A stretch of 37,023 nt of DNA, from NCBI RefSeq assembly GCF_001418495.1, contig NZ_LIQY01000037.1, positions 1 through 37,023 of the forward strand, written 5' to 3'. This stretch comes from Streptomyces pathocidini. Its GTDB lineage: Bacteria; Actinomycetota; Actinomycetes; Streptomycetales; Streptomycetaceae. Below the pieces are notes generated by a model. That model worked only from the letters and a program-made list of their open reading frames with translations, made no database searches and was not told the origin of the DNA. Below, one piece after another: positions 834 to 23,090 of this stretch (position 1 is its first letter; each line of letters starts with the position of its first letter). The position numbers and the translations under genes were made by a program.

Positions 834-1643
834 GCCGAGGAGCCCGTTCTCCGCCTCGGTGGCCTGGGTCATCACGTACTGCCGGTGCTTGCGCGTGCAC
901 CACAGGGCGACGTTGTCCGACAGGGTCGGGAGGCTGGCGACGTCCTGCGCGCCGAGCCCCATCACCTTGCCGAGCACCTCCGACTCCTGTGGCGACACCC
1001 GCTGTACGGCGACCACGTCGGCGCCGGCGAGCAGCCGGGGCGCGGTGGGGCCGAGGTAGGGCACGAGGGTCAGGACGGACTGCCAGGGCGCGGCCGTGAT
1101 GCGGCTGCGCGGTGGGCGGGCGCCCAGGTCGCGGACGATGAGCACGGGGCTCGCGGCGGACGGGCCCTGCGGAGCCATCCGGCCCACCTGATGCACCGTC
1201 ACGCACTGCTGGCCGCCGCCGGCCGCCTGCGCCATTGGCGTCCAGGCCTGCGGGCGGGCGGTCTCCACGGCGACGCGCGCGCCGGTCGCGGCCGCGCGCA
1301 GGGCGATGACCTGGGCGATCCACGTACCGCCGACCAGCACCACGTCCAGCCGGGTAGGGCGGCACAGGCCCAGCACGGCGGTCTGGTTGCTCGCGTCGAC
1401 GCCGATGATCAGGCCGTCGTCGCCCACGGGCAGGCTCAGTTGGGCCAGCCGGCGACTGTCCAGGACGTGTGGGTTGCGGCGCGGGCCCAGCAGGCCGAAG
1501 GCCGCCCGCAGCCGCCGCTGCGGCTGGTTGGTGTCGCGGTCCGGGGTGCGCGGCAGGTGGCCGGGGCGCTGGGCCGGGAAGCCCGCACGGTCGGAGGCCT
1601 GGCCGGGACGGCCGGTGAATCCGGGAGCGAGGGGGGTGGACAT
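813..1643 (-). CDS. T7SS-associated protein of unknown function
   Basis: A 276-aa protein. Its ATG (1641-1643) overlaps the eccE stop codon by one base (TGATG), so it is almost certainly translated from the eccE transcript. The first 50 or so residues are Pro/Arg-rich and probably disordered. The rest looks like an alpha/beta fold with alternating hydrophobic strands, for example DVVLVGGTWIAQVIALRA near residue 115 and SPVLIVRDLG near residue 180. No P-loop, membrane segment or signal peptide is visible. I do not recognise the family. Tight coupling to eccE suggests a cytoplasmic accessory of the secretion machine. The C-terminus (PARRMD) is followed by a near-copy of its own coding sequence plus stop, described separately. 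Confidence 0.8.
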   Translation of the reverse strand: MSTPLAPGFTGRPGQASDRAGFPAQRPGHLPRTPDRDTNQPQRRLRAAFGLLGPRRNPHVLDSRRLAQLSLPVGDDGLIIGVDASNQTAVLGLCRPTRLDVVLVGGTWIAQVIALRAAATGARVAVETARPQAWTPMAQAAGGGQQCVTVHQVGRMAPQGPSAASPVLIVRDLGARPPRSRITAAPWQSVLTLVPYLGPTAPRLLAGADVVAVQRVSPQESEVLGKVMGLGAQDVASLPTLSDNVALWCTRKHRQYVMTQATEAENGLLGPARRMD

Positions 1644-2986
1644 CAGCGCGTTCCTCCCAGAGGCAGGGTGGCGAGCACACCGGGGAGCTGCTCGCGGTCG
1701 AGGCGGACCAGGCCGATCTTGGAGGCCGAGGCGACGCGCTCCAACTGGCGGCGTGCGGCGGTGAGTTCGTTCTCGCTGCGACCGGTGAGCCGTATGTATC
1801 CGGACAGCGCCGTGGCATTGCCGCTCGCCTTGCTGAGGGTCAGCGAGAACGTGCTGGCCAGCGCGGGCGAGGCGGTCAGCTGGCCGACCAGCGCGGGCAG
1901 CGGGGCGGCGTCCTGGCCGAGCTGCGGCCAGCGGCCGACCCAGTACGAGGTGTGCCAGCGGTCGTCGCAGCGCCAGACCCGACTGGTCTCCGCCGTACGG
2001 CGGTTGGCGCGGCTGCCGTCCAGCGCCGCACCGCCGGTGGTGGCGGCCGGGTTGACGCAGCTGGAGGTCGCGACGGCCGAGACGATCCCGGACTCGCTCA
2101 GCACCTTGGCGCTCAGGCCCGCCCCCATCAGGCGGCTGGTCAGGTGGTCGGCCACGCGCAGCAGCGCCCGCCGGGCGCCCTGCATCCCGCCGCCGCGGGC
2201 CTCGACGGCCTCCGGGCACAGCTCGGGGTCGAGCTTGAGCGCGACCCAGGTGAGCCGCAGACCCGGGGTCATGCTCTGGGCCTGGAGCGGCGCGTAGCTG
2301 CGCGCGGCCATGGCCTGCTGGGGCAGGTGCGGCGCGGGCGCGGGCTGGGTGTGCTGGACGACCTGGACGGAGGCCAGCTTGATGTCGTCCACCTCGAGCA
2401 GGGCCTGGAGCAGGTCGAGCGGCACTTCGCGCGCGCCGGGGGCCGGGCGCAGCGGGGTGTCCATGGCCTGCACCTGGACCAGGGCGGTCAGGAACGTGCC
2501 GTCGCCGACCATGCCGATCTCACGCTGGCTGCGGTCCTGGAAGGAGTACGTGCGCAGCGCCGGGTCGCACTCGACCGCGGGCGCGAAGCCCGGGTCCGTA
2601 CCGGCTGGGAGCGGGGCGCCGTTGCGCTTCCTGCGGTCCTTCAAGGCGCGGGTGGTGGCGAACCACTCCTGGAGCGGGCGGCCGTGGCGGCGCAGCAGGC
2701 CGAACAGGACGAGCGGCACGGCGAGCACGGTGGCGACGGCGAGACCGATGGGCCGGAGGAGCCATCCGGCCACGAACAGCGCGGCGGCCAGCTCGATGAC
2801 CACGAGTTGCTGCACCCGTACCGAGGCGCCGCTGCCGGCGCGCCTGGAGAGCGAGGGCGCGGCCGGGCCGAGGCGGGCCGGAGCGGCTGACCGCTCTCCC
2901 CGCTGGGCGTCGTGGTCTCGCTCCGTCCGGCGACTGTCCGAACGACGGCTGTCGTTACGGCGCCGGGACCTGGTCGCTGTGCTCAT
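1643..2986 (-). CDS. eccE: Type VII secretion membrane component EccE
   Basis: A 447-aa protein with the EccE layout. A basic, disordered N-terminus of about 55 residues is followed by two adjacent hydrophobic segments (about residues 58-75 and 79-98) and a soluble C-terminal domain of about 340 residues. EccE is the peripheral membrane subunit of actinobacterial ESX systems, completing the complex with EccB, EccC and EccD. ATG at 2984-2986 is preferred. An in-frame TTG four codons upstream sits directly against the GGGAG ribosome-binding sequence and is a poor start. The gene diverges from eccB across 195 bases, so both core genes may share a control region. Sequence divergence of EccE makes the name dependent partly on context. 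Confidence 0.85.
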   Translation of the reverse strand: MSTATRSRRRNDSRRSDSRRTERDHDAQRGERSAAPARLGPAAPSLSRRAGSGASVRVQQLVVIELAAALFVAGWLLRPIGLAVATVLAVPLVLFGLLRRHGRPLQEWFATTRALKDRRKRNGAPLPAGTDPGFAPAVECDPALRTYSFQDRSQREIGMVGDGTFLTALVQVQAMDTPLRPAPGAREVPLDLLQALLEVDDIKLASVQVVQHTQPAPAPHLPQQAMAARSYAPLQAQSMTPGLRLTWVALKLDPELCPEAVEARGGGMQGARRALLRVADHLTSRLMGAGLSAKVLSESGIVSAVATSSCVNPAATTGGAALDGSRANRRTAETSRVWRCDDRWHTSYWVGRWPQLGQDAAPLPALVGQLTASPALASTFSLTLSKASGNATALSGYIRLTGRSENELTAARRQLERVASASKIGLVRLDREQLPGVLATLPLGGTR

Positions 2987-3024
2987 CCCCCGGTACAACT
3001 CCCTTTGTTATTCGGCCGCTTGGT

Positions 3025-5407: not shown

Positions 5408-5698
5408 ATGTCCGGGCAGATCCTCGTCAATTTCCAGACGATCTCCCAGGCCGCACAGGACGTGCGTTCGACGGCCAACAACATCCGCCGCCAGCTCGAC
5501 GACCTCGAGGCCGGCGTCAAGAAGATCGCCACCTCGTGGGAGGGCTCCGCACAGGAGGCTTACCGCGCCAAGCAGGCGGAGTGGGACCAGCGCGCCGCCT
5601 CGATGCAGCAGACGCTCGAGGCCATCGCCAAGGCCCTCGACAGCGCCGCGCAGAACTACCAGAGCACCGAGTCGGCGAACGCCAAGATCTGGGGCTGA
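5408..5698 (+). CDS. esxA: WXG100 type VII substrate (EsxA-like)
   Basis: A 96-aa WXG100 protein, close to the canonical size. SWEGSAQEAY (WXG) occurs at about residues 43-52 between two amphipathic helices, and YQSTE near the C-terminus is a second YxxxE signal. ATG at 5408 is preceded by GAGGAG eight bases upstream. It lies 64 bases after its partner and before a hairpin (5711-5747), so the pair forms a bicistronic unit. It probably forms a heterodimer with the 5023-5343 product and is exported through the Ecc channel. Experimental work in S. coelicolor has linked the orthologous pair to sporulation. Confidence 0.93.
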   Translation: MSGQILVNFQTISQAAQDVRSTANNIRRQLDDLEAGVKKIATSWEGSAQEAYRAKQAEWDQRAASMQQTLEAIAKALDSAAQNYQSTESANAKIWG

Positions 5699-5787: not shown

Positions 5788-5912
5788 CGGCTCGATTTCG
5801 GTCCGGCTTCGGCCGGCTCGATTTCTCGCCCGGTCTCGGGTCTTGTCGGGGGCCTGGGGCTGGCTTGGTTGGTTGTGTTCGGCTTTGACGCCGCGTTTGG
5901 GCTTTGACGCCG
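5788..5912 (+). repeat. Direct repeats before mycP
   Basis: CGGCTCGATTTC occurs at 5788-5799 and 5814-5825 (period 26). GGCTTTGACGCCG occurs at 5881-5893 and 5900-5912 (period 19). The 265-base gap otherwise contains only the two hairpins and the mycP ribosome-binding site. The TTTGACG in the second repeat resembles a -35 but no matching -10 was found. Confidence 0.6.
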
Positions 5913-5963
5913 TACGGAGGCCTCGGCCTCGTGGGACGGCAGGCAACGGGAGGACGTAGGACA

Positions 5964-7412
5964 GTGGGTTCTGGGGCATCGCGGAGGGCTGCCGCGGCAG
6001 CTGCCATGCTGGCGGCCGTCGTGAGCGGGGTGCCCTTCGCGGGAGCGGCACCGGCCGCGGCCGACGCGCGGGTGTCCGGCGGGGGCGGCGGCTCGGCAGC
6101 GGGTTCGGGTGTGGGCTCGGGCACGGGTTCGGGAGCGGCCTCGGGGGTGGGTCTGGGAGCGGCCTCAGGAGTGGGTACTTCCCTCGCGGACGGCGGTGAG
6201 GACGGCGTGCGCTTCCAGGTCGACGACACCAACTGCTCGTTCCCGTCCGACCCGATCAAGGGCACGCCGTGGTCCCTGCAGCGGCTCGTGCTCGACCAGC
6301 TCTGGAAGGACACCCGCGGTGAGGGCGTCAAGGTCGCCGTCATCGACACGGGTGTCGACCCGCGCAACCCCCAGCTGCGGAGCGCGGTTTCGAAGGGCAG
6401 CGACTTCCTGGACAAGGGCGGCGACGGCCGCCTCGACAAGGTCGGCCACGGCACGAAGGTCGCGGGCATCATCGCGGCCCGCGAGTCCTCCGCGAGCGGC
6501 TTCATCGGCCTGGCACCGAAGGCGACGATCATCCCGGTCCGCCAGAACGACGACCAGGGCAAGGGCAACGTCGCCACGATGATGCAGGCCATCAAGTACG
6601 CGGCGGACGCGGGCGCGAAGGTCATCAACATCTCCCAGGACACCGCCTCGAAGATGGACCCGAGAGTGGACGCGGCCTTCCGGGCCACCGTCAAGTACGC
6701 CCAGGAGAAGGACGCCCTGATCGTTGCGTCCGCGGGCAACAACGGCGCGGACGGCAAGATCAAGGAGACGTACCCGGCGGCGTACGAGGGCGTGCTCGCC
6801 GTCGCGGCCTCCGACCGCAACAACGCGCGCGCCCCCTTCTCCCAGTCGGGCGAGTTCGTGGGCATCGCGGCCCCCGGCATCGACATGGTCTCGACCGTCC
6901 CCGCCGGCGGCCACTGCGTGGACCAGGGCACGAGCTTCTCCGCCCCCTACGTCTCGGGCGTCGCGGCCCTGATCCGCGCCAAGCACCCCGACTGGAGCCA
7001 CGAGCAGGTCATCACCCAGATCGAGCAGACGGCGGACCGCACGAAACCCGGCCGCGACAACTTCGTCGGCTGGGGCGTGGTGGACCCCGTCGCCGCACTC
7101 ACCGACGACACGGCCGCGCCACCGGAGTCCGGCCCCACCGCCGACCCGGTCGGCGGGGGCGGCGACCGCGCCGACGTCGAGGCCGCCACCATCATCCTGG
7201 GCGAATCCCCCCAGCAACGTACCGAACGCTTCGCCCTCTACGCCTTGGCGGGCGGCCTCAGCGCGGTCATCCTCCTGATAGGCGGCGGAGTGGTCCTGGG
7301 CGACTGGCGCCGCAAGCAGGGCGGTAGCGGGCCCTCTCGCCGGAGGCGCGTGATCCACGCCCGAGTCGTCAGCAACAACTTCGAAAATAACGGGGAGCCA
7401 CGACATGGCTGA
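5964..7412 (+). CDS. mycP: Mycosin, membrane-anchored S8 subtilisin-like protease
   Basis: A 482-aa secreted serine protease. GTG at 5964 with GGGAGGA nine bases upstream gives a clean signal peptide: RR, then an Ala-rich hydrophobic stretch ending near the AAADA at residues 31-35. A Gly/Ser-rich linker (about 38-75) precedes the protease domain. The catalytic triad is Asp128 (VIDTG), His162 (GHGT) and Ser324 (GTSFSAP), with oxyanion Asn259 (SAGNN). Cys91 and Cys318 could form the mycosin disulfide. A C-terminal transmembrane helix (about 424-447) precedes a basic cytoplasmic tail. Mycosins are needed for the stability and function of ESX complexes. The stop overlaps the start of the next gene by eight bases. 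Confidence 0.95.
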   Translation: MGSGASRRAAAAAAMLAAVVSGVPFAGAAPAAADARVSGGGGGSAAGSGVGSGTGSGAASGVGLGAASGVGTSLADGGEDGVRFQVDDTNCSFPSDPIKGTPWSLQRLVLDQLWKDTRGEGVKVAVIDTGVDPRNPQLRSAVSKGSDFLDKGGDGRLDKVGHGTKVAGIIAARESSASGFIGLAPKATIIPVRQNDDQGKGNVATMMQAIKYAADAGAKVINISQDTASKMDPRVDAAFRATVKYAQEKDALIVASAGNNGADGKIKETYPAAYEGVLAVAASDRNNARAPFSQSGEFVGIAAPGIDMVSTVPAGGHCVDQGTSFSAPYVSGVAALIRAKHPDWSHEQVITQIEQTADRTKPGRDNFVGWGVVDPVAALTDDTAAPPESGPTADPVGGGGDRADVEAATIILGESPQQRTERFALYALAGGLSAVILLIGGGVVLGDWRRKQGGSGPSRRRRVIHARVVSNNFENNGEPRHG

Positions 7413-7716
7413 TCAATACAAGGTCGAACTGAGCGAACTCGAAGGCACGATCACGAAGCTGAACGGCGTCCTGAGCCGTCTCGGTAACGCGGATTCAAAC
7501 GCCAAGACAAACACATATCTTCCTGCGGGGGCATTGGGGACCGGGTTCGACGAGGCGGATTCGCTGGCGAGCGCGCACAGCACGATGAAGACGCACATCG
7601 AAGACGTCGTGACGTATCTGAACGACGTCGTGAATTCCTTCGGAGACAAGACTAAGAAGGTTCACGGGGCGTACCAGGATTCCGAGTACGACGCTCAATC
7701 GGGATTTCGTGGCTAG
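7405..7716 (+). CDS. ESX-like small helical protein without WXG
   Basis: A 103-aa protein in WXG100 size range, with two predicted amphipathic helices around a short Gly-containing turn (LPAGALGTGFDEAD at about residues 39-52). There is no Trp at all, so the WXG motif is absent. YQDSEYD near the C-terminus offers YxxxE-like spacing. ATG at 7405 lies inside the end of mycP, with GGGGAG about ten bases upstream. It is followed after 35 bases by a PPE-like gene. I infer it is the partner of that larger protein, as PE is to PPE, but no family could be named. Codon use changes here: more A/T in third positions than in mycP. Confidence 0.85.
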   Translation: MADQYKVELSELEGTITKLNGVLSRLGNADSNAKTNTYLPAGALGTGFDEADSLASAHSTMKTHIEDVVTYLNDVVNSFGDKTKKVHGAYQDSEYDAQSGFRG

Positions 7717-7751
7717 TGGCTGCGGTGCGGACCAACGAGGGGCAGTGAGAC

Positions 7752-9155
7752 ATGGCTGAGGAAAAGATCGACCAGGTCGGCTACGACTATCAGGCAGCGA
7801 ACATGTGCTTCAACGAGAGGCACACGACGAACTTCGCCGGTGGTAGGGACATGGACCAGATGAAGGCCATGGTCGCCAATGCCAACCCCGACGCGGTGAA
7901 GAAGGTCGCCGATGGCTGGATGGGGCTCAGGGATGAGCTCGCTGGTGGGGATGGCAGCGTAAAGGCGGATTTCGACAAGGCCGTGGCGCACATCCTGCAG
8001 CACTGGGAGGGGGCGTCCGCGGAGAGGTTCTCCGAGCATGCACGGCAGATCAGCAAGAGCCTTCAGGACTGCTCCGAATATGCCCGGTACACGTCGGTCG
8101 CGATGCGGAACGCGGGCGAGGTACTTGGCCGAATCAAGCCCGAAGTCGACGCCATGGAGAAGCCGAGCGGGTTCTCCAGCGCGATGAACAGCCTTGGAGA
8201 CGGCTTTACGCGGAGCGACGAAGGGCTCAACAACGACTTGAAGGGCGGCAAAGGCGCCCAGGAGGCCCTCGACCGCAACCACGACGACCTCTCGGCAGGC
8301 CGCGAAAGGCAGCTCGAGATGGCTGCGAAGATGGAGACGCTTGGCGCGGCTTATCAGTCGCAGGCTAAAGCGATGGGGTCGTGGAACAGGAAGACGAATC
8401 CACGAGACGATGAGGAGTATCCGGGGGAGCCCGGAGGCACAGCACCCACACCTGTGGTCATGCCGACGGCACCTTCGCCTCGTACCCCGAAGAACGTGTC
8501 CCCAGGGGTGGTTCGTAGTCCCCAGACCGGCTCGATCAGCCCATCGAAGCCTGCGGGCCCGCCCCGTGACTCGGGCATCACAGGCGGGGCCCAGAAGCCC
8601 GTCGCCCCGAAGCCTCAGGTGGGCACGGCCATCGACGGCATCACCAGCACCGTCGGTGGCGGACCAACTCCCGGTGCACCGAGCACCGCTCCAGGCGGCG
8701 GAACACCCGTTGGCGGCGGACCGGCCAGCGGTGCGGGCCCTGTCAGCACCGGTGGGACGGTCAAGGGCGGTGCCACAACAGGCCGTTCCGGTGTCGCAGG
8801 ACGCCCCGGAGCGGGCGGCATGGGTGGCGCAGCGGGCGCAGCCAAGGGCGGCGCCGCAGGAGCACGCTCCGGTGGCATGGCGCGGCAGCGTGGCGGCGTG
8901 GTCGGAGGCGCGGCCAGGGCAGCGGCTGGCGCAGCCAAGGGAACTGCTGGCGGCTCGGGTCTGCACCGCAGCCGGGGTGCAGCAGCCGGATCGGGTGCAG
9001 CCTCTCGTAAGGGTGGTGTCGCAGGTGTCCCCGGCGCCCGCAACGGCCGTCCCAACGAGGAAGAATCCCGCGAAGGCGAGCGCCCCGACTACCTCATCGA
9101 AGACGAGGAAACCTGGACCCCGCAGCGTAACGTGGCGCCTCGAGTCATCGAGTAA
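7752..9155 (+). CDS. PPE-like putative T7SS substrate with Gly/Ala/Pro-rich tail
   Basis: A 467-aa protein. The N-terminal 200 residues are helical, with HWEG at 84-87 (WXG-type turn) followed by a long helix. Residues from about 220 to 440 are low-complexity, rich in Gly, Ala, Pro, Thr and Ser. The protein ends with an acidic segment containing EDEETWTPQRN and VIE. That layout (folded WXG domain, disordered tail, conserved acidic C-terminus) recurs in PPE-like proteins of Streptomyces as far as I recall; the recollection is not verified here. No PPE tripeptide is seen at the start. ATG at 7752 follows GAGGGG. It sits between the WXG-less small protein and a second mycosin, which suggests a substrate-partner-protease group. 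Confidence 0.85.
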   Translation: MAEEKIDQVGYDYQAANMCFNERHTTNFAGGRDMDQMKAMVANANPDAVKKVADGWMGLRDELAGGDGSVKADFDKAVAHILQHWEGASAERFSEHARQISKSLQDCSEYARYTSVAMRNAGEVLGRIKPEVDAMEKPSGFSSAMNSLGDGFTRSDEGLNNDLKGGKGAQEALDRNHDDLSAGRERQLEMAAKMETLGAAYQSQAKAMGSWNRKTNPRDDEEYPGEPGGTAPTPVVMPTAPSPRTPKNVSPGVVRSPQTGSISPSKPAGPPRDSGITGGAQKPVAPKPQVGTAIDGITSTVGGGPTPGAPSTAPGGGTPVGGGPASGAGPVSTGGTVKGGATTGRSGVAGRPGAGGMGGAAGAAKGGAAGARSGGMARQRGGVVGGAARAAAGAAKGTAGGSGLHRSRGAAAGSGAASRKGGVAGVPGARNGRPNEEESREGERPDYLIEDEETWTPQRNVAPRVIE

Positions 9156-9235
9156 GCTGCTTGGTTTGCTGTCGCAGTTGGTAAGAGGGTGTGGGCGGGG
9201 ATGGTCTCGCCCACACCCGAGAGAGGACACAACGG

Positions 9236-10528
9236 ATGGGCTTCTCCCGGACATTGCGCACTGCAGGTCTCGGCGTGCTGGCAGGTGCATTGCTGGTTGC
9301 TTCTGCACCGCTCGCTGCAGCGGATGAGGTCAGAGACAAGCAATGGGCACTCCAGGCGCTCAAGGCAGAAGCCTCGTGGAAGGTCTCGCAGGGAAGCGGT
9401 GTCACCGTTGCTGTCATCGATGACGGAGTAAATGCGAACCACATCGACCTTCAAGGAAATGTCCTGGAAGGTAAGGATTTTGTGGACGGCGGCAGTCCCA
9501 CTCCCGCGCCGGGTGATAACCACGGCACAGCAATGGCTGCACTTATCGCTGCCCACGGCCACGGGACCGATGATGGTGTGAAGGGCCTAGCGCCTGCGGC
9601 GAAAATTCTTCCAATCCGTGACTTTGACTCAGAAGCGGGCCAGCTTGGCACTGTGATTCGGTACGCGGCCGATAACGGTGCATCGGTAATCAATGTCTCA
9701 CAGTGCTTCGAATCCAGCAGCCCCTTTGAGCAGGCCAAGGTATCCGATGCCGTAGCCTATGCATTGAAGCGTGATGCTCTGGTTGTTGCCAGTGCGGGTA
9801 ATCAGGATGAAGACACAAAATGTTACCCAGCGGCTGCGCCGGGGGCACTTGGCGTAGGTGCCGTGAAGAACGATGGAACTATCTGGGAAAATTCCATCTC
9901 AGCGCCCTACGTGTCCTTGACTGCTCCCGGCACTCACATCTTTTCCGCAGCTGGGGTTGGCAACACGTATCGTGCTGGCTCGGGTAATTCAGACTCTTCT
10001 GCCTACGTGGCGGCAGCTGCAGCTCTCCTCCGGTCGAAATTCACGGACTTGACGGCAGGTCAGATCGCTAACCGCCTCGTCAAGACAGCTGCCCTACCCG
10101 ATGTCGCCAGAGGGGTTTCCCTGCCGGACGAACGATACGGCTATGGCAGCATCCAACCCTTGGCTGCGTTGACCAAGGACATCCCCGTCGGCTCGAAGTA
10201 CGGTCCACTCAAGATTCCTGAGTCTCTCGATGGGAAGCCATCCGTTGATGAACCTTCGCTCGGCATGAGCGATGCCGAGCAGGAGCAGGCTGACCGAAAG
10301 GCTCTGATCATCTGGTTGGTTATCGGCGTGGTGGGCCTGGTTGCCATTGGTCTGCTCGTGCTGCTGATCGTCAAGCTCTCCAGGCGCAAGAAGGGCAACA
10401 GCGGTGATTCGGACGGTCCTTCCGGATCGGCGGGTTACTCGCAGCACGGCCAGCAGCCCTTCCCGCCCCAGCAGAACCCGTACCACCAGCCCACCCACAC
10501 GTCCGGCCAGTGGCCGCCTCAGCAGTAG
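9236..10528 (+). CDS. Second mycosin-like S8 protease, membrane-anchored
   Basis: A 430-aa S8-family protease. ATG at 9236 with GAGAGGA eight bases upstream gives a signal peptide (residues 1-29, ending at APLAAADE). The triad is Asp62 (VIDDG), His96 (DNHGT) and Ser252 (GNSDSSAYV). Asn189 (SAGNQ) supplies the oxyanion hole. The Ser region departs from the usual GTSxSAP: Thr is replaced by Asn and the Pro is lost, although the nucleophile is kept. A transmembrane helix lies at about 356-381, followed by a Gln/Pro-rich cytoplasmic tail. It lacks the long Gly/Ser linker of the first mycosin. The gene is markedly A/T-richer than its neighbours (32 G+C in 60 at 9661-9720, against 41 in 60 at 6961-7020). 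Confidence 0.92.
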   Translation: MGFSRTLRTAGLGVLAGALLVASAPLAAADEVRDKQWALQALKAEASWKVSQGSGVTVAVIDDGVNANHIDLQGNVLEGKDFVDGGSPTPAPGDNHGTAMAALIAAHGHGTDDGVKGLAPAAKILPIRDFDSEAGQLGTVIRYAADNGASVINVSQCFESSSPFEQAKVSDAVAYALKRDALVVASAGNQDEDTKCYPAAAPGALGVGAVKNDGTIWENSISAPYVSLTAPGTHIFSAAGVGNTYRAGSGNSDSSAYVAAAAALLRSKFTDLTAGQIANRLVKTAALPDVARGVSLPDERYGYGSIQPLAALTKDIPVGSKYGPLKIPESLDGKPSVDEPSLGMSDAEQEQADRKALIIWLVIGVVGLVAIGLLVLLIVKLSRRKKGNSGDSDGPSGSAGYSQHGQQPFPPQQNPYHQPTHTSGQWPPQQ

Positions 10529-10542
10529 GTGCTGGCTGACAG

Positions 10543-10577
10543 CGAGCCCGGTGCCCTTGACGGGGCTACCGGGCTCG
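10543..10577 (+). terminator. Terminator after the second mycosin
   Basis: CGAGCCCGGTGCCC pairs with the 3' arm ending ACCGGGCTCG, giving a 14-bp stem with one bulged T. It starts 15 bases after the stop, and TATTCGTTTG follows. It marks the right edge of the low-G+C group. Confidence 0.7.
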
Positions 10578-11643: not shown

Positions 11644-11928
11644 ATGTCGGACATCAAGATCGATGTCGATCGCATGAAGGTTCTGCTGAACAAGCTGGAC
11701 CAGGCGGACGACCGCATGCGCGGTGCCTGCGAGAAGTTGCAGAAGGTCGGGCCCACGGGCCTGGGCACCGACGGGCTCGACAACGCCTGCGACGACTTCC
11801 AGGATGACTGGGGCGACGGCATCAAGCGCATCGCCGATGCGTCCGAGAAGATCCACGAAGGGCTCAAGAAGACGCTCGAGTCGTACGAGTCGAATGAGGA
11901 AGAGACGAGGAAGGGCTTCACGGGTTAG
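11644..11928 (+). CDS. Small WxxG helical protein, cassette 1
   Basis: A 94-aa protein of WXG100 size, with a long first helix, a turn and a second long helix. Instead of WXG it has W-G-D-G within FQDDWGDG (about residues 52-59). YESNE near the end fits YxxxE. Its middle shares a strong pattern with the product at 18632-18943: GTxxLDxACxxFQDxW. That protein occupies the same position in the inverted cassette 2. ATG at 11644 is preceded by GGGGAGGCGACGGGG. It is probably co-transcribed with, and a partner of, the effector-like protein that follows 250 bases downstream. The family has no name I can give. Confidence 0.88.
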   Translation: MSDIKIDVDRMKVLLNKLDQADDRMRGACEKLQKVGPTGLGTDGLDNACDDFQDDWGDGIKRIADASEKIHEGLKKTLESYESNEEETRKGFTG

Positions 11929-12178
11929 CAGCCGCGTCCCGGGGCTTTTCCGGAGCTCTCCTGGACCTCTCCCAGGGTTTCCCGGTGGCTTTCCAGCGGC
12001 TCACCGGAGGCTCTCCGGGAGTTATCCACAGGGGTGGTCCTCCGCGGACGCGCAGTCCACCCTGGTTCCTGGGCAACCACTCGTCACAACGGCTCAACAC
12101 GCCGCGCACAAACGGCTCAACACGCCGCACCACGGCCGAAGACGGCGCATAACGGACGGCGGATAACGGGGAGAGAAC
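11929..12178 (+). other. Cassette 1 leader: direct repeats and small hairpins
   Basis: A 250-base gap without a gene. The first half has short G/C hairpins, for example CCGGAG-gct-CTCCGG near 12004. The second half has an exact 17-base direct repeat, ACGGCTCAACACGCCGC, at 12089-12105 and 12112-12128 (period 23), followed by several ACGG-containing near-repeats up to the ribosome-binding site (GGGGAGAG before 12179). It may bind a regulator. A single TTATCCACA at 12022-12030 is considered coincidental. Confidence 0.6.
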
Positions 12179-13441
12179 ATGGGCGATTCCAACTGGCCGG
12201 GGCTGGGGTTCAACCCCGCCAAGGGCGACTTGCACACGGTCGAGTCACTCGCGTACGACGTGAAGACGGTCGGCGACGAACTCGACGAGTTGCACGAGCT
12301 GTTGACGAGCGTCGGCAAGACGGATGGCGTCTGGGAGGGCGAGGCCGCCCAGAAGTTCAAGGACAAGCTCGGCGAGCTGCCCAAGTACCTGAAGCAGGGT
12401 CATGAGTCCATGACAGCCTGCTCGCAGGCGCTCAAGGCCTGGCAGACCAGACTCCAGGGCATGCAGTCGCAGGCCAAGGGGCTGGAGGCCGACGCCGTGG
12501 AGGCGCGCCACAAGCTCGACCAGCGCAACTCCGATATCGAGCGGGTCAACGGCAGGATCCAGGCCGCCCGCGGCCGCGAGCTCACCGAGGCCGAGGCCAA
12601 GCAGCTGGGGGACGAGTCCGAGGCCGCCCAGAACGCGGCGAACGCCGCCGTCGCGTCCCTTCAGGAGATCATCGATCGGGCCGAGAAGCTCCAGCAGGAG
12701 TGGCAGGACCGGGCGGGGGAGGCCGAGGACGCCATCCGCAAGGCCGCCGAGAACCGGCCACCGGACATCGGCATGTGGGAGAGCTTCACCGACGGCCTGA
12801 AAGCGGCCTGGGACGGCTTCACGGACTTCCTGGTCGAGCACGCCGACCTCTTCTCCACCATCTCCAGCGCGCTCGCGGCCGCAGCCCTCGTCGTCAACGT
12901 CATCCCGATCGGCGGCCAGGTGGCCTCCGCGATCCTGGGCGCGGGCTCGGTCGCCTTCGCCGGGGCCGCCATGGCGGGCCACTGGATGGGCGCGGCGCGG
13001 GGGAACGGCACACCGATCTGGAAGATCGGCCTCGACGCGCTCGGCGTGATCCCGGGGCTGGGCGCCGCCAAGGGCCTGGTGTCCGGCATCAAGGCGGGTG
13101 CCAAGGGTGCCAAGTTCGCGACCGGCCTCGCGCAGGGCGGCAAGACCATGATGAACCAGCTCAAGAACCCGTTCAGCACAAAGATGATCAACAAGGGCCT
13201 GGGGCTGTTCGGGAAGGCCGTGGACCCGGCGTTGCTCACCACCGGGGTCAAGGGCTTCTCCACCGGATTCGGCGCGGGCAACCTGCTGTTCGGCGGGAAC
13301 GACGGCGGAGACGCCGCGCAGAGCGGATCCGGGGCGCAGAGCGGCTCCGGCACACAGAGCGGATCCGGCGCCCCGAAGGGCGTCCAGACCATGCCGTACC
13401 CGGCCACGCCCAACACCTTCCACCAGACCCTGGCGGCCTGA
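12179..13441 (+). CDS. Putative T7SS effector with N-terminal WXG domain, cassette 1
   Basis: A 420-aa protein. The start has GLGFNPAKG (residues 8-16), followed by a WXG100-like helical hairpin with WEG at 52-54. A long coiled-coil region follows (about 75-195). A hydrophobic, Ala/Gly-rich central part (about 220-270) contains at least two possible membrane-inserting helices, and then a further Gly/Ala/Lys segment. The tail has three SGSG(A/T)Q-type repeats (about 384-400). The layout resembles LXG/WXG polymorphic effectors, but the C-terminus shows no nuclease, ADP-ribosyltransferase or other toxin motif. It shares start motif, WEG position and hydrophobic centre with the 17340-18635 product. 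The next gene begins five bases after the stop, implying translational coupling with its partner. Confidence 0.85.
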   Translation: MGDSNWPGLGFNPAKGDLHTVESLAYDVKTVGDELDELHELLTSVGKTDGVWEGEAAQKFKDKLGELPKYLKQGHESMTACSQALKAWQTRLQGMQSQAKGLEADAVEARHKLDQRNSDIERVNGRIQAARGRELTEAEAKQLGDESEAAQNAANAAVASLQEIIDRAEKLQQEWQDRAGEAEDAIRKAAENRPPDIGMWESFTDGLKAAWDGFTDFLVEHADLFSTISSALAAAALVVNVIPIGGQVASAILGAGSVAFAGAAMAGHWMGAARGNGTPIWKIGLDALGVIPGLGAAKGLVSGIKAGAKGAKFATGLAQGGKTMMNQLKNPFSTKMINKGLGLFGKAVDPALLTTGVKGFSTGFGAGNLLFGGNDGGDAAQSGSGAQSGSGTQSGSGAPKGVQTMPYPATPNTFHQTLAA

Positions 13442-19142: not shown

Positions 19143-22100
19143 TCAGCTCTCCGGCAGATATCCCGTCTGCACCAGCTGCCCGCTGCCGCGGCGGGAGACG
19201 AACTGGCCCCGACCGGGCGGCATCTGAGTCGCCTTGATGTTGTTGAACACCGGGCCCTCCGACGGGTCGCCGGAGAGGACCACGCCCTGCGCGCCCAGTT
19301 CCTTGATGCGGGTGAGGACCGGCTCGAAGGAGGAGCGCGAGGCGCCCGAGGTGGAGCGGGCCAGGATGATGCGCAGGCCCAGGTCCCGGGCGAACGGCAG
19401 GTACTCCAGCAGGACCGACATCGGGTTGCCCATCGACGTGGCGACCAGGTCGTAGTCGTCGATGAAGATGAACGCGTCCGGCTCGTTGTACCAGCTGCGG
19501 TTGCGCAGCTGCTCCGGCGTCACGTCCGAGCCCGGCATACGGCGGCTCATCGAGCCGGCCAGCGACTCCATGACCTCCTGGAGCTGCGGCCCCGAGGCGC
19601 AGTACTTGTACATGTGGCTCTCGGGCACCTGGCCGAGCAGCGCCCGCCGGAAGTCCGAGACCACGAACAGCGCCTTGCCCGACTCGTACCGCTCGGACAC
19701 CTGCTTGGCGATGAGCCGCAGCAGCGAGGACTTGCCGGACTCGCTCTCGCCATAGATGACGAACAGCGGGTCGGTCTCGAAGTCCACGAAGACCGGCGAC
19801 AGCGTGAGCTCGTCCACGCCGATCGCGATCCCGCGGCCGGAGAAGTCCCCGCCGCGCGGCAGCTCGGCCGCGGGCAGCATCGTCGGCAGCATCCGCACCT
19901 TCGGTGCCGTACGGCCCTGCCAGGCGTTGTTGACGGCCGAGGCGAGGCCCGCCATGCCGTCCGAGAGGTCCTCGACCGTCGGCGCCCCGTCGATGCGCGG
20001 CGTCGCCGCCAGGTAGTCGAGCTTGTCGGGGGAGAGGCCGCGGCCGGGCTTGCCCACGGGTACGTTCTCGGCCCGCTTGCGGTCGAACTCGGACTCCATC
20101 GCGTCGCCGAGCCGCAGTTCGAGCCGGTTGAGCACCTGGTCGCGCAGCGCCGGCCGCATCTCGGTGTAGCGGGTGGCCGTGATGACCAGGTGGATGCCGA
20201 AGCCGAGACCGCGGGTGGCGATGTCGGTGATGACCGGGTCGAGCAGCTCGTAGTCGTTCTTGAAGGTCGCCCAGCCGTCGATGATCAGGAAGACGTCGCC
20301 CCAGTGCTGGTCCGGATAGTGGCCCTGGGCCCGCCGGTTCCGGAACGTCCCCATCGAGTCGATGCTGTTGGCGCGGAAGAACTCCTCGCGCGCGTTGAGG
20401 ATGCCGTGCACCTCCGCGACCGTACGACGCACCTTCTCCGCGTCCAGTCGCGAGGCCACCCCGCCCACGTGGGCCAGGTTCTCCAGCGCGAGCATGCCGC
20501 CGCCGCCGAAGTCCAGCGCGTAGAACTGCACCTCGCTCGGGGTGTGGGTGAGGGCGAACGAGGCCGTCATCGTGCGCACCAGCGTCGACTTGCCGGACTG
20601 CGGGCCGCCGACGATCAGCGCGTGGCCGGACGAGCCGGACAGGTCCGCGTACAGCACGTCGCGGCGCTGCTCGAAGGGCTTGTCGACCAGGCCGAGCGGT
20701 ACGACCAGCTTGCCCTGGCCGTGGTAGCCCTCGGCGAACAGGCCCCGCTCCGCACTGGTGCCCAGCGCGGGCAGCACCTGGTCGAGGCTGAACGGCTCGT
20801 CCAGCGGCGGCAGCCACACCTGGTGCGCCGGCGGTCCCTGGCCCTCCAGGCGGCTCACGATGACGTCCAGGACCGTGTCCTTCAGCGCGTCGTCGACGTC
20901 GTCGCGCCGCACCTCCGGCTCCGGCTCGGCGAGGATCCGCACCGGCACCGGCGCCGCGGTGAACAGCACCGGCGAGCGGTCGATGCGGCGCCCGCCGGAG
21001 GCGACGGGGCCGTCGGCGCGGTAGGTGCCCGACACGTACGCGGCCTTGAACTGCACCATCGTCTCGGTGTCGTACTTCAGGATGCCCGCGCCGGGGACGT
21101 TGGGCAGGTGGTAGGCGTCAGGCACGCCGATCGCCGTACGGGACTCGGCCGCCGAGAAGGTCCGCAGACCGATCCGGTACGACAGGAAGGTGTCCAGGCC
21201 GCGCAGCTTGCCCTCCTCCAGCCGCTGCGAGGCGAGCAGCATGTGCACACCCAGCGAACGGCCGATGCGGCCGATCTGGATGAACATTTCGATGAAGTCC
21301 GGCTTGGCGGCCAGCAGTTCGCTGAACTCGTCGATGATCAGTACGAGCGAGGGCAGCGGGTCGAGCGGGGCGCCGGCGGCGCGGGCCTTCTCGTAGTCGG
21401 TGATGTTGGCGTAGTTGCCCGCCTGGCGCAGCAGCTCCTGACGGCGCGTCAGTTCACCGGTGATCGAGTCGCGCATGCGGTCCACGAGCGTCAGCTCGTC
21501 GGCCAGGTTGGTGATCACCGCGGAGACGTGCGGCATGGTGCCCATGCCGGTGAAGGTCGCACCGCCCTTGAAGTCCGCGAGGACGAAATTCAGCGTCTCC
21601 GAGGAGTGCGTCACCGCGAGGCCGAGTACGAGCGTGCGCAGCAGTTCCGACTTACCGGAACCGGTGGCGCCGACACACAGGCCGTGCGGGCCCATGCCCT
21701 CCTGCGAGGCCTCCTTGATGTCCAGCATGACCGGCTCGCCGCTCTCGCCGAGCCCGATCGGCACCCGCAGCCGCTCGTGCAGCGTGCGCGGGCGCCAGGT
21801 GCGGGCGACATCCACGCTCGCGGCGTCGCCGATGGACATCAGGTCGGTGAAGTCCAGGTTCGCCAGCAGCGGCTCGTCGGCGTCGGCCGCGCCCAGCCGC
21901 AGCGGGGCCAGCTGGCGCGCCAGCGACTCGGCGTGCGCCTGCGACAGAGTGTCCGGCACGCCGGTGAACACCCCGGCGCCCGCCTCCAGTTCGAGCACCT
22001 CGGGGTAGACGCGCACCGCGAGCGAGCCGCGCAGCTCGTCCAGGTCGCCGGGCACCACCTCGACGATGGTCACGCCCTGCAGGCCCTCGGCCGAGGCGAG

Positions 22101-23090
22101 CACCGAGTCGGCCGGCACACCGCCGCCGTCCAGGACGACGACCACGTGCGGCTGGTCCAGGACGGGCTGGCCCTCGGTGTTGAACCGGGCCCGGCCCTCC
22201 AGGTCGCTCGCGATCATCTCCTCGACCTCGCCGAGGTCCTGGCACATCAGCCGGCGCGTGCCGGCTCCGTCGGACTCCTTGTGCTGCAGGTGCGGCAGCC
22301 ACTTGGCCCACTCCCACTCCAGCGCCGCGCCGGGCGCCGCCACGACCGCGATCCGCAGGTCCTCGGGCGAGTGCAGCGAGGCCAACTGGCCCAGCATCGC
22401 GCGGGTCTGGCCGTACACCGCGTCGGGGTCGCCGGAGACCGTCACGTGGTAGAAGGAGCGCAGCCCGATCGCCAGCGGCAGCTCGCCCAGCGTCCCGTGG
22501 CCCGCGATGAACTGCTGCATCGCGTGGGCGGTCAGCGGCTCCAGCTCGTCCACCGGCGCCGTCTCGGGGGCGACCAGCGGCGTGGCCAGCTGCTGCGGCC
22601 CGAGCCCGAGGCGCACCTGTACGAAGTCCGGGTCCGTGGAACGCCGTTCCCACAGCCGGGAGCCCTCCGCGACCAGCGCCCACAACTGCTCGGGCGCCGG
22701 GTGCAGGTAGTACTGCGCGTCGCGCTGCTTGTGCGCGGTCCGCCGCACCTCGCGCCGCTTCTGCGCCAGGTACTTGAGGTAGTCCCGGCGGCCCTCGGCC
22801 ATCTGCCCGGACGGTCCCTTGCGCGCGCGCACCACCTGGGCGATGACCATCGCCACGGTGGACGCCATCATGAGCATGCCCATGATCTTCATGAAGCCGC
22901 CGGCGCCCTGGGCGCCCGGCATGAAGAAGAAGGCCGCCGACGAACCCATGCCGAGCATCGGCAGCAGGTTCATCAGCAGGCTGTCGTCCTCATTGCGCGG
23001 CAATTCGGGAGGAGGAGCGAGCTTGACCTCCTCACTCGGCACCTCCGGCGGGAACACCCGCGGCGGGCGCTTGACGATGACGACGCTCAC
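19143..23090 (-). CDS. eccC: Type VII secretion ATPase EccC (three FtsK/SpoIIIE domains)
   Basis: A 1315-aa motor of the ESX machine, with EccCa and EccCb fused as usual outside mycobacterial ESX-1. Two transmembrane helices lie at about residues 39-60 and 65-88, then a DUF region and three P-loop domains. Walker A: GATGSGKS (474-481), GGPQSGKS (828-835), GESESGKS (1114-1121). Walker B: LIIDE (584-588) in domain 1, but LIIDG in domain 2 (Asp938) and FIDDY in domain 3. Only domain 1 therefore has the catalytic Glu, as in characterised EccC proteins where domains 2 and 3 regulate and bind substrate. The start is GTG 23088-23090. It diverges from eccD across 273 bases. Confidence 0.97.
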   Translation of the reverse strand: MSVVIVKRPPRVFPPEVPSEEVKLAPPPELPRNEDDSLLMNLLPMLGMGSSAAFFFMPGAQGAGGFMKIMGMLMMASTVAMVIAQVVRARKGPSGQMAEGRRDYLKYLAQKRREVRRTAHKQRDAQYYLHPAPEQLWALVAEGSRLWERRSTDPDFVQVRLGLGPQQLATPLVAPETAPVDELEPLTAHAMQQFIAGHGTLGELPLAIGLRSFYHVTVSGDPDAVYGQTRAMLGQLASLHSPEDLRIAVVAAPGAALEWEWAKWLPHLQHKESDGAGTRRLMCQDLGEVEEMIASDLEGRARFNTEGQPVLDQPHVVVVLDGGGVPADSVLASAEGLQGVTIVEVVPGDLDELRGSLAVRVYPEVLELEAGAGVFTGVPDTLSQAHAESLARQLAPLRLGAADADEPLLANLDFTDLMSIGDAASVDVARTWRPRTLHERLRVPIGLGESGEPVMLDIKEASQEGMGPHGLCVGATGSGKSELLRTLVLGLAVTHSSETLNFVLADFKGGATFTGMGTMPHVSAVITNLADELTLVDRMRDSITGELTRRQELLRQAGNYANITDYEKARAAGAPLDPLPSLVLIIDEFSELLAAKPDFIEMFIQIGRIGRSLGVHMLLASQRLEEGKLRGLDTFLSYRIGLRTFSAAESRTAIGVPDAYHLPNVPGAGILKYDTETMVQFKAAYVSGTYRADGPVASGGRRIDRSPVLFTAAPVPVRILAEPEPEVRRDDVDDALKDTVLDVIVSRLEGQGPPAHQVWLPPLDEPFSLDQVLPALGTSAERGLFAEGYHGQGKLVVPLGLVDKPFEQRRDVLYADLSGSSGHALIVGGPQSGKSTLVRTMTASFALTHTPSEVQFYALDFGGGGMLALENLAHVGGVASRLDAEKVRRTVAEVHGILNAREEFFRANSIDSMGTFRNRRAQGHYPDQHWGDVFLIIDGWATFKNDYELLDPVITDIATRGLGFGIHLVITATRYTEMRPALRDQVLNRLELRLGDAMESEFDRKRAENVPVGKPGRGLSPDKLDYLAATPRIDGAPTVEDLSDGMAGLASAVNNAWQGRTAPKVRMLPTMLPAAELPRGGDFSGRGIAIGVDELTLSPVFVDFETDPLFVIYGESESGKSSLLRLIAKQVSERYESGKALFVVSDFRRALLGQVPESHMYKYCASGPQLQEVMESLAGSMSRRMPGSDVTPEQLRNRSWYNEPDAFIFIDDYDLVATSMGNPMSVLLEYLPFARDLGLRIILARSTSGASRSSFEPVLTRIKELGAQGVVLSGDPSEGPVFNNIKATQMPPGRGQFVSRRGSGQLVQTGYLPES

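What the first reader, a model, noticed from the sequence alone, without database searches (positions are those of the whole stretch)
7405..10577. Lower-G+C island with its own substrate pair and mycosin
From inside the end of mycP to the terminator at 10577, A/T in third positions rises (32 G+C of 60 at 9661-9720, 41 of 60 at 6961-7020). The three genes (WXG-less small protein, PPE-like protein, second mycosin) form a self-contained substrate-protease group, suggesting later acquisition into the locus.
Basis: partly seen in the sequence, partly recalled or inferred. Interest (0 to 1): 0.65.

Follow-up and report, generated by a model that had tools for sequence, protein, structure and literature searches.

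The report
Swappable secretion substrate-protease gene cassette
Inside a Streptomyces protein-export (type VII) locus lies a three-gene cassette for a presumed two-part exported protein and its own protease; it looks like an old, repeatedly exchanged part of the locus rather than a recent newcomer, and its presumed exported protein ends in a conserved tag that almost always sits next to such a protease gene.

Summary
The composition drop is real. GC3 falls from 0.92 in neighbouring core genes to 0.73, 0.75 and 0.63 in the three genes. Against sampled genes of the same genome only the second mycosin is extreme (0 of 89 as low).

"Later acquisition" is only partly right. The trio follows mycP1 in the same order in 18 other distinct Streptomyces loci; a diverged PPE-mycP2 version sits in 7 of 14 other fetched ESX core loci, again GC3-poor. 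Mycosins 1 and 2 are two old groups. So the module is old in the locus, but its alleles are exchanged: two species with core genes 96-99% identical (eccB 80%) have trios only 49-64% identical, breaking at the first gene's start.

The pair has T7SS features: YxxxE in the small protein, WxG and a PPE-like helical domain in the large one. The large protein ends in a conserved tag, RPDYLxEDEETW...PxVIE. Of 101 assessable tag sites, 99 have a mycosin gene directly downstream. In the sampled class I found the tag only in this genus. Recognition or cleavage by the mycosin is inferred, not shown.

The parts
1643..2998 (-). eccE, ESX core
   Evidence: TIGR03923, 203 bits
3182..4753 (+). eccB, ESX core
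   Evidence: TIGR03919, 176 bits
4951..5343 (+). WXG100 protein (label esxA is mine)
   Evidence: WXG100 above cut-off in Pfam and NCBIfam
5408..5698 (+). WXG100 protein (label esxB is mine)
   Evidence: TIGR03930, 75 bits
5904..7412 (+). mycP1, core mycosin (start codon uncertain)
   Evidence: TIGR03921, 352 bits; old group separate from mycP2
7405..7716 (+). small helical PE/Esx-like presumed partner, 103 aa, no WXG; first gene of the cassette
   Evidence: homologues in 59 of 295 sampled genus genomes; helical hairpin model of modest confidence, weak best match to EsxA
7672..7686 (+). YxxxE motif (Y90-E94) of the small protein
   Evidence: YxxxD/E in 21 of 25 aligned homologues, FxDAE in the other 4
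7752..9155 (+). PPE-like presumed substrate: helical domain (residues about 25-210), Gly/Ala/Pro-rich low-confidence linker, C-terminal tag
   Evidence: alignment A2, model, PPE/EspB/EsxA structural and profile matches
8004..8012 (+). W85-x-G87 of the PPE-like protein
   Evidence: WxG in 31 of 31 aligned homologues
9081..9152 (+). C-terminal tag RPDYLIEDEETWTPQRNVAPRVIE at the end of the PPE-like protein
   Evidence: YLxE[DE]xxTW in 29 of 31 rows; tag profile found in 117 of 199 genus genomes
9236..10528 (+). mycP2, second mycosin: hydrophobic N-terminus (presumed signal peptide), subtilase domain, C-terminal TM, Pro/Gln-rich tail
   Evidence: Peptidase_S8 136 bits; TIGR03921 277.8 bits, just below its cut-off of 278.75; D62, H96, N189, S252 conserved in 59 of 59 aligned mycosins
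10289..10387 (+). C-terminal transmembrane segment of mycP2 (about residues 352-384)
   Evidence: Kyte-Doolittle windows up to 3.3
10563..10576 (+). terminator-like hairpin after mycP2 (no more than chance in this scan)
19143..23090 (-). eccC ATPase of the same locus
   Evidence: TIGR03924/TIGR03925

Best explanation
7405-10528 is a T7SS substrate-protease cassette of the Streptomyces ESX locus. The small protein (YxxxE) and the PPE-like protein (WxG) probably pair like PE-PPE proteins, are recognised by EccC and exported; the PPE-like chain carries a long, probably disordered linker and a fixed C-terminal tag. MycP2, presumably exported by Sec and anchored by its C-terminal helix, probably waits on the outer face and docks on or cuts the C-terminal part of this substrate, as MycP1 does with EspB in mycobacteria. 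The cassette is an old part of the locus. Its alleles are exchanged between strains by recombination whose left edge, in the pairs examined, is the start of the small gene, and copies also sit elsewhere in some genomes. Its low GC3 is a lasting property of the PPE and mycP2 genes. Shown: gene content, motifs, conserved catalytic residues, synteny, tree conflict, left breakpoints, tag-mycosin gene linkage. Inferred: heterodimer, export, cleavage, role of the tag.
For: Same order after mycP1 in 18 other distinct loci; diverged PPE-mycP2 in 7 of 14 other core loci. Core and trio trees conflict (15 loci; core = eccE, esxA, esxB, mycP1, eccB left out): the core data reject the trio's clade B (AU p 8e-4), the trio data reject the core's grouping L053+L061+L048 (AU p 2e-65). 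L053 and L061: eccE 98%, mycP1 96%, fourfold sites 95 and 94% there, but small 49%, PPE 64%, mycP2 61%; identity falls from 93-100% to 56% at the small gene's start. Catalytic D, H, S and the oxyanion N in 59 of 59 aligned mycosins, three of them duplicates of L047, and the triad aligns with a solved subtilase. WxG in 31 of 31 PPE-like rows, YxxxD/E in 21 of 25 small rows. The five best VIA-align entries are PPE proteins (Z 9.9-10.6), EspB at 8.3; EsxA profile match E 4e-6. Tag followed by a mycosin in 42 of 42 loci, 15 of 15 more and 42 of 44 chosen mainly among weaker tags, one further at a contig edge. Independent: in S. pratensis the mycosin Sfla_1620 and Sfla_1621 are among 59 core genes more than 5% divergent between strains whose median core identity is 99.59% (PMC4239341, section 11 read). 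MycP1 cuts EspB (PMC5156307, part 1 of 2 of the text read).
Against: No experiment shows pairing, export or cleavage. The trio does not always travel whole: in L056 small and PPE are nearest type B, while mycP2 falls with type A. The tag is nearly the same in alleles A and B although their mycosins differ by about 35-43%, so it may bind something common to all and not the cognate mycosin. The fold match is not far above unrelated long-helix proteins (Z 9.0; the tool warns that Z under about 13 can be a common arrangement for helical proteins), and no Foldseek match reaches E 0.001. The small protein's model is of modest confidence (pLDDT 68). eccB also shows a mixed history (80% between L053 and L061, 94% between L053 and L048), so exchange is not confined to the trio.
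Confidence: 0.7

Rival explanations
1. Recent horizontal insertion of a foreign three-gene block into an ESX locus that lacked it.
For: Lower GC3 than the neighbours; small protein of the window's type in only 59 of 295 genus genomes; trios in stretches without core genes: L052, L054, L060, L063, L070; 6 of 14 other core loci show no trio gene in the stretch held.
Against: Same position in 18 other distinct loci with diverged sequences; diverged trio in 7 of 14 other core loci; lower GC3 shared by the diverged homologues; no mobile-element gene among 10 neighbours scanned, which is only a part of them.
Confidence: 0.08
2. No exchange: the trio is simply a fast-evolving, weakly expressed part of the locus with relaxed codon choice, inherited vertically.
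For: mycP2 is less alike than mycP1 at protein and (uncorrected) fourfold sites in all 45 pairs compared; the lower GC3 is persistent.
Against: Conflicting trees with strong AU tests and a sharp identity break at the small gene's start; two genomes (G291, G234) carry type B in the locus and type A elsewhere. Within type B the small gene is 99-100% identical and 89-95% at its 44 fourfold sites among L048, L057, L058 and L059, more alike than eccE or mycP1 there, which simple fast evolution does not predict.
Confidence: 0.12
3. Differential loss after an old duplication: both types were once tandem and each lineage kept one.
For: Tandem mycP2 copies in L048, L049 and L067; two types in one genome in G291 and G234.
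Against: No locus with both complete types side by side was seen in the stretches read; core genes of L053 and L061 are 96-99% identical (eccB 80%), leaving little time for sorting.
Confidence: 0.15
4. The tag is a docking or chaperone signal for the common ESX machinery, and its link to mycosin genes only reflects operon structure.
For: The tag hardly varies between alleles while the mycosins do; mycobacterial EspB has a chaperone, EspK (PMC9811218, title and start of abstract seen in the listing).
Against: The core WXG100 pair of the window carries no such tag yet belongs to the same machinery; tags megabases away from the core mycosin (L140 in G014, L143 in G004) are still followed by a mycosin.
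Confidence: 0.3

Closest known systems
EspB / MycP1 of mycobacterial ESX-1
   Same: PPE-like helical domain with WxG, long unstructured C-terminal part, a membrane-anchored mycosin that processes it; similar length of the substrate (details of EspB recalled; cleavage by MycP1 from PMC5156307)
   Different: EspB fuses the PE and PPE halves (PDB titles), here they are two genes; EspB has no DYLxEDEETW tag that I know of (recalled); MycP1 is also a core component, whereas here a second, separate mycosin exists beside the core one
PE-PPE pairs (PE25-PPE41 and others)
   Same: Small partner gene first and PPE gene second (order recalled), WxG in one and YxxxD/E in the other; best structural matches are PPE chains
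   Different: No match to Pfam's PPE model; no EspG-type chaperone looked for; own mycosin and C-terminal tag
Sfla_1620/Sfla_1621 of the S. pratensis esx/bldB operon
   Same: Mycosin listed with an Ala/Pro-rich ESX-associated protein, both unusually divergent between strains (PMC4239341, section 11)
   Different: Homology of Sfla_1621 to the PPE-like protein was not tested here; the section describes divergence only, no cassette exchange, tag or pairing

Membership tests
Mycosin (T7SS subtilase) | Subtilase domain with D-H-S triad and oxyanion N | tested here: met
   D62, H96, N189, S252; conserved in 59 of 59 aligned mycosins; Peptidase_S8 136 bits
Mycosin (T7SS subtilase) | TIGR03921 score above curated cut-off | tested here: inconclusive
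   277.8 bits against a cut-off of 278.75 over nearly the full profile, E 1e-82
Mycosin (T7SS subtilase) | N-terminal signal peptide and C-terminal transmembrane anchor | tested here: met
   hydrophobic windows at residues 9-32 and 352-384 (hydropathy only, no signal-peptide predictor)
WXG100/PPE-type T7SS substrate | WxG turn in a helical hairpin | tested here: met
   WxG in 31 of 31; EsxA profile match E 4e-6 over that region; helices 70-84 and 88-134 around W85-G87
PPE-type T7SS substrate | Full PPE fold | tested here: inconclusive
   PPE chains rank first, Z 9.9-10.6, but unrelated long-helix chains reach 9.0 and the tool calls Z under about 13 unsafe for helical proteins; no Foldseek E under 0.001
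PPE-type T7SS substrate | Pfam PPE family match | tested here: not met
   only a sub-threshold WXG100 match, 17.6 bits against 27.3; so it may work like a PPE protein but is not filed in that family
PE/EsxB-type partner | C-terminal YxxxD/E secretion motif | tested here: met
   Y90-E94 in the window; 21 of 25 homologues, F in place of Y in 4
PE/EsxB-type partner | Pairs with the WxG protein and is co-exported | not testable with these tools
   needs co-expression or secretome work
EspB family | Cleavage of the C-terminal part by a mycosin | not testable with these tools
   needs biochemistry; only gene linkage was shown
Recently inserted genomic island | Absent from the orthologous site in relatives | tested here: not met
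   same site occupied in 18 other distinct loci, though 6 of 14 other core loci show no trio gene
Recently inserted genomic island | Composition atypical against the genome | tested here: inconclusive
   mycP2 is below all 89 sampled ORFs, small and PPE are within the range

The most novel reading that the evidence does not exclude
Streptomyces has a so far undescribed protein-sorting pair: a C-terminal tag (RPDYLxEDEETW...PxV[IV][DE]) on T7SS substrates that is recognised by a dedicated neighbouring mycosin, which frees or releases the substrate at the outer face. The pair is an exchangeable cassette whose two allele types swap in otherwise near-identical export loci, as expected if the exported product is under pressure to differ between strains.
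Probability: 0.35. Interest if true: 0.7.

Novelty: new variant of a known kind. Interest (0 to 1): 0.55.

Why it matters
Why actinobacteria keep an extra mycosin beside the core one is, as far as I know, open. A tag that is genetically bound to that extra mycosin turns the question into a simple test: does the tag decide which protein the mycosin acts on? The allelic exchange adds that the presumed exported product varies between strains more than the machine does, which points to contact with neighbours, phages or predators, or to developmental signalling (speculation). It also warns that low GC3 inside a Streptomyces locus need not mean recent transfer.

Tried and rejected
Rejected: recent insertion (see rivals). 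Rejected: bldA-type control through TTA codons; there are none in the trio or in eccB, esxA, esxB and mycP1. Phage origin: mycP2 against 50,697 phage records gave 23 records with partial subtilase matches, none covering 80% of the query (10 of the 23 listed). Plasmid origin: the PPE-like and small proteins each match 1 of 72,556 plasmid records, the same 2.8-Mb linear replicon of Streptomyces sp. BHT-5-2; it carries eccE, eccB, both WXG100 genes, mycP1 and the trio, so it says nothing about mobility of the trio alone. Neighbours of the trio: 10 proteins from six loci (L047, L052, L054, L057, L061, L062) scanned with Pfam gave no transposase or integrase, 3 gave any match; other neighbours were not scanned. 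Sigma-70 promoter scan: none.

Results that weakened my reading: L056 is a mosaic; the small gene's GC3 is not consistently low in other loci (0.74-0.93); two assessable tags lack a downstream mycosin (L234, L253); L050 has core and mycP2 but no recognisable small or PPE gene, and L068 a mycP2 only; L069's trio lies next to an eccC-like gene, so it is not clearly away from a core; 6 of 14 other core loci showed no trio gene in the stretch held, one on a 6-kb contig, and a seventh (L103) only a mycP2 about 7 kb away. The tag profile was built from 16 trio loci; 11 of the 42 loci are such seeds. Linkage was tested on 102 tag matches, a part of those listed; the 45 were chosen by me, mainly weak ones. 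Tag counts are lower bounds, because only part of the candidates per genome is scored. Rows dropped: L055 (duplicate of L047) and two short mycP2 pieces of L049 from the tree; 17 of 106 ORFs from the background; eccB from the core tree.

Literature: seven searches of the held open-access library. Among the titles and starts of abstracts listed (lists capped at 10-20, up to 66 papers matching) none describes the tag or the cassette exchange; subscription journals are mostly not held, so this is weak. Papers: PMC4239341 passages and section 11; PMC5156307 part 1 of 2; PMC10924467 and PMC11217815 passages only; others listing only.
Full report
What was claimed.

The observation. Both base counts are exact. 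GC3 is 0.73 (small), 0.75 (PPE-like) and 0.63 (mycP2), against 0.92 for eccB, esxA, esxB and mycP1 together, far beyond chance. The drop begins at the small gene and ends in the last codons of mycP2, whose final 30 codons are back at 0.97. The strain's own background, estimated from 258 kb in 40 contigs, has mean GC3 0.82 in 89 coding-like ORFs (17 of 106 dropped as not coding-like); small and PPE lie inside that range (18 and 25 of 89 are as low) and only mycP2 lies below all 89. The sampled contigs have 64% G+C and the window 70%, so the flanking core genes are themselves GC-rich.

Setting. The window is the ESX (type VII) locus of a Streptomyces: eccE, eccB, two WXG100 genes, mycP1, the trio, further small genes, eccC, and then polynucleotide phosphorylase and dapB. 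The genus follows from a same-genus genome, G221, whose contig has the same length as the named record of S. griseorubiginosus.

What the genes are. The small protein has no WXG; homologues carry YxxxD/E near the C-terminus (21 of 25; 4 have F for Y), and a model of modest confidence is a helical hairpin with EsxA as a weak best match. The PPE-like protein has W-x-G in 31 of 31 rows and a helical domain at about residues 25-210, mostly at pLDDT above 90, then about 230 residues of low confidence, read as disorder. Its profile matches EsxA structures (E 4e-6), and the five best structural entries are PPE proteins (Z 9.9-10.6) with EspB at 8.3; unrelated long-helix proteins reach 9.0, no Foldseek match is under E 0.001, and the tool calls Z under about 13 unsafe for helical proteins, so the full PPE fold is likely but not proved. 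Pfam's PPE family is not met. MycP2 is a subtilase with all catalytic residues (59 of 59 aligned mycosins; triad aligned with a solved subtilase), a hydrophobic N-terminus and a C-terminal anchor. It scores one bit under the curated mycosin cut-off.

The tag. The PPE-like protein ends in RPDYLIEDEETWTPQRNVAPRVIE. The core of the block is kept in 29 of 31 homologues while the linker before it varies freely. A 40-column profile (A4) finds it in 40 of 61 and, in a larger overlapping draw, 117 of 199 Streptomyces genomes, and in 13 of 246 genomes of the class, all 13 in the window's genus; 102 other genera gave none. In all 42 tag loci returned a mycosin match starts 21-103 bases downstream on the same strand (11 of the 42 are seeds of the profile). 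The 15 new loci give 15 of 15, at 65-119 bases. I also took 45 further tags, chosen mainly among weak ones: 42 have the mycosin, 2 do not, 1 lies at a contig edge. In all, 99 of 101 assessable sites; other listed tags were not tested.

History. The small protein of the window's type occurs in 59 of 295 genus genomes. Besides the window, the order mycP1, small, PPE, mycP2 was read in 18 distinct loci: 14, where L047 and L055 are the same record and count once, plus L117, L118, L120 and L203. L119 repeats L048 and is not counted. Trios with no core gene matched in the stretch read: L052, L054, L060, L063 and L070 (L070 has another, distant mycosin nearby); L069 lies next to an eccC-like gene and L062 is cut by its contig end. 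Of 14 other core loci fetched (L101-L114), 7 carry a diverged PPE plus mycP2 after mycP1, 4 of these also a recognisable small gene, one has only a distant mycP2, and 6 show none in the stretch held. In the tree of 73 mycosins, core mycosins and second mycosins form separate groups with long branches between them; one row I had labelled mycP1 (in L070) falls outside the core group. In the 14 loci the PPE gene (GC3 0.67-0.78) and mycP2 (0.54-0.76) are below mycP1 (0.86-0.93) each time; the small gene is not consistently low (0.74-0.93). In the 7 diverged trios PPE (0.67-0.84) and mycP2 (0.68-0.82) are below eccB of the same locus (0.84-0.95) each time; several mycP1 ORFs in that call were extended too far upstream to serve as yardstick. 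Fourfold sites of mycP2 are far diverged, 24-51% identical among the ten loci compared. I infer that a composition that survives this is not a residue of a recent donor.

Exchange. Among the ten in-locus relatives compared (window included), core and trio disagree. L053 and L061 share eccE at 98%, esxA 98%, esxB 99%, mycP1 96% (eccB 80%), but small 49%, PPE 64%, mycP2 61%; L053 and L048 show the same pattern, with eccB at 94%. Sliding identity falls from 93-100% to 56% at the start of the small gene (L053 position 9640; 60-base windows), and for L047 against L057 homology resumes at L047 position 13711 at 76-93% per window. With eccB left out, the core data reject the trio's type-B clade (AU p 8e-4), and the trio data reject the core's L053+L061+L048 (p 2e-65). 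The window's trio groups with type A (100/99), while its core branches outside all nine others. Two genomes, G291 and G234, have type B in the locus and type A elsewhere (G234's locus typed). Against a clean single unit: L056 has small and PPE nearest type B and mycP2 with type A, and eccB also shows mixed ancestry. An independent report on S. pratensis strains lists a mycosin (Sfla_1620) and an Ala/Pro-rich protein (Sfla_1621) among 59 core genes more than 5% divergent, in a species with median core identity 99.59% (PMC4239341, section 11 read).

How it most likely works. Small and PPE-like proteins pair, with the YxxxE and WxG signals on different partners as in PE-PPE, and leave through EccC (inferred from motifs and fold). 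MycP2 is exported by Sec, anchored outside, and acts on the C-terminal half of the PPE-like protein (inferred from the linkage of tag and mycosin genes and from MycP1 cutting EspB, PMC5156307). The tag hardly varies between alleles while the mycosins do, so it may instead bind a common partner; I hold that open at about 0.3.

Verdict. The composition shift and the three genes are confirmed; "later acquisition" is replaced by "old resident with exchanged alleles". The unit is a new variant of a known kind (T7SS PPE-like substrate with mycosin). The tag-mycosin linkage is the part that seems new; the listings of seven literature searches show no description of it, in a library without most subscription journals.

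Noticed in passing
L054:13078-15486: Near a stand-alone trio lies a protein with a T7SS signal domain (PF21725) and an ADP-ribosyltransferase domain (PF03496): a likely T7SS-exported enzyme.
   Followed up: no
L047:11369-13644, L051:12335-14607, L053 (same place): A third, more distant mycosin follows mycP2, preceded by a protein with one hydrophobic stretch, without the tag but with its own conserved C-terminus (ending RRTVLGK): possibly another partner-protease pair.
   Followed up: partly
L249 (G028:C22:1-9300): Three tag-mycosin pairs lie in tandem within about 9 kb.
   Followed up: partly
small genes of L048, L057, L058, L059: Within type B the small protein is 99-100% identical, with fourfold sites more alike than those of eccE and mycP1, while mycP2 of the same loci is 74-80% identical: different ages inside one cassette.
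   Followed up: partly
L203 (NZ_CP081497.1:1452612-1472117): eccE, eccB, two WXG100 genes, mycP1 and a trio lie on a 2.8-Mb linear secondary replicon of Streptomyces sp. BHT-5-2.
   Followed up: partly
window 5904-6200: The first 100 codons of the mycP1 ORF have GC3 0.70-0.76 and a Gly/Ser-rich repeat, so the true start of mycP1 may lie downstream of 5904.
   Followed up: no
window 11644-13441: After the trio a WXG100-like small gene (below cut-off) and a T7SS_signal protein (PF21725) form a second presumed substrate pair, seen again in L056.
   Followed up: no
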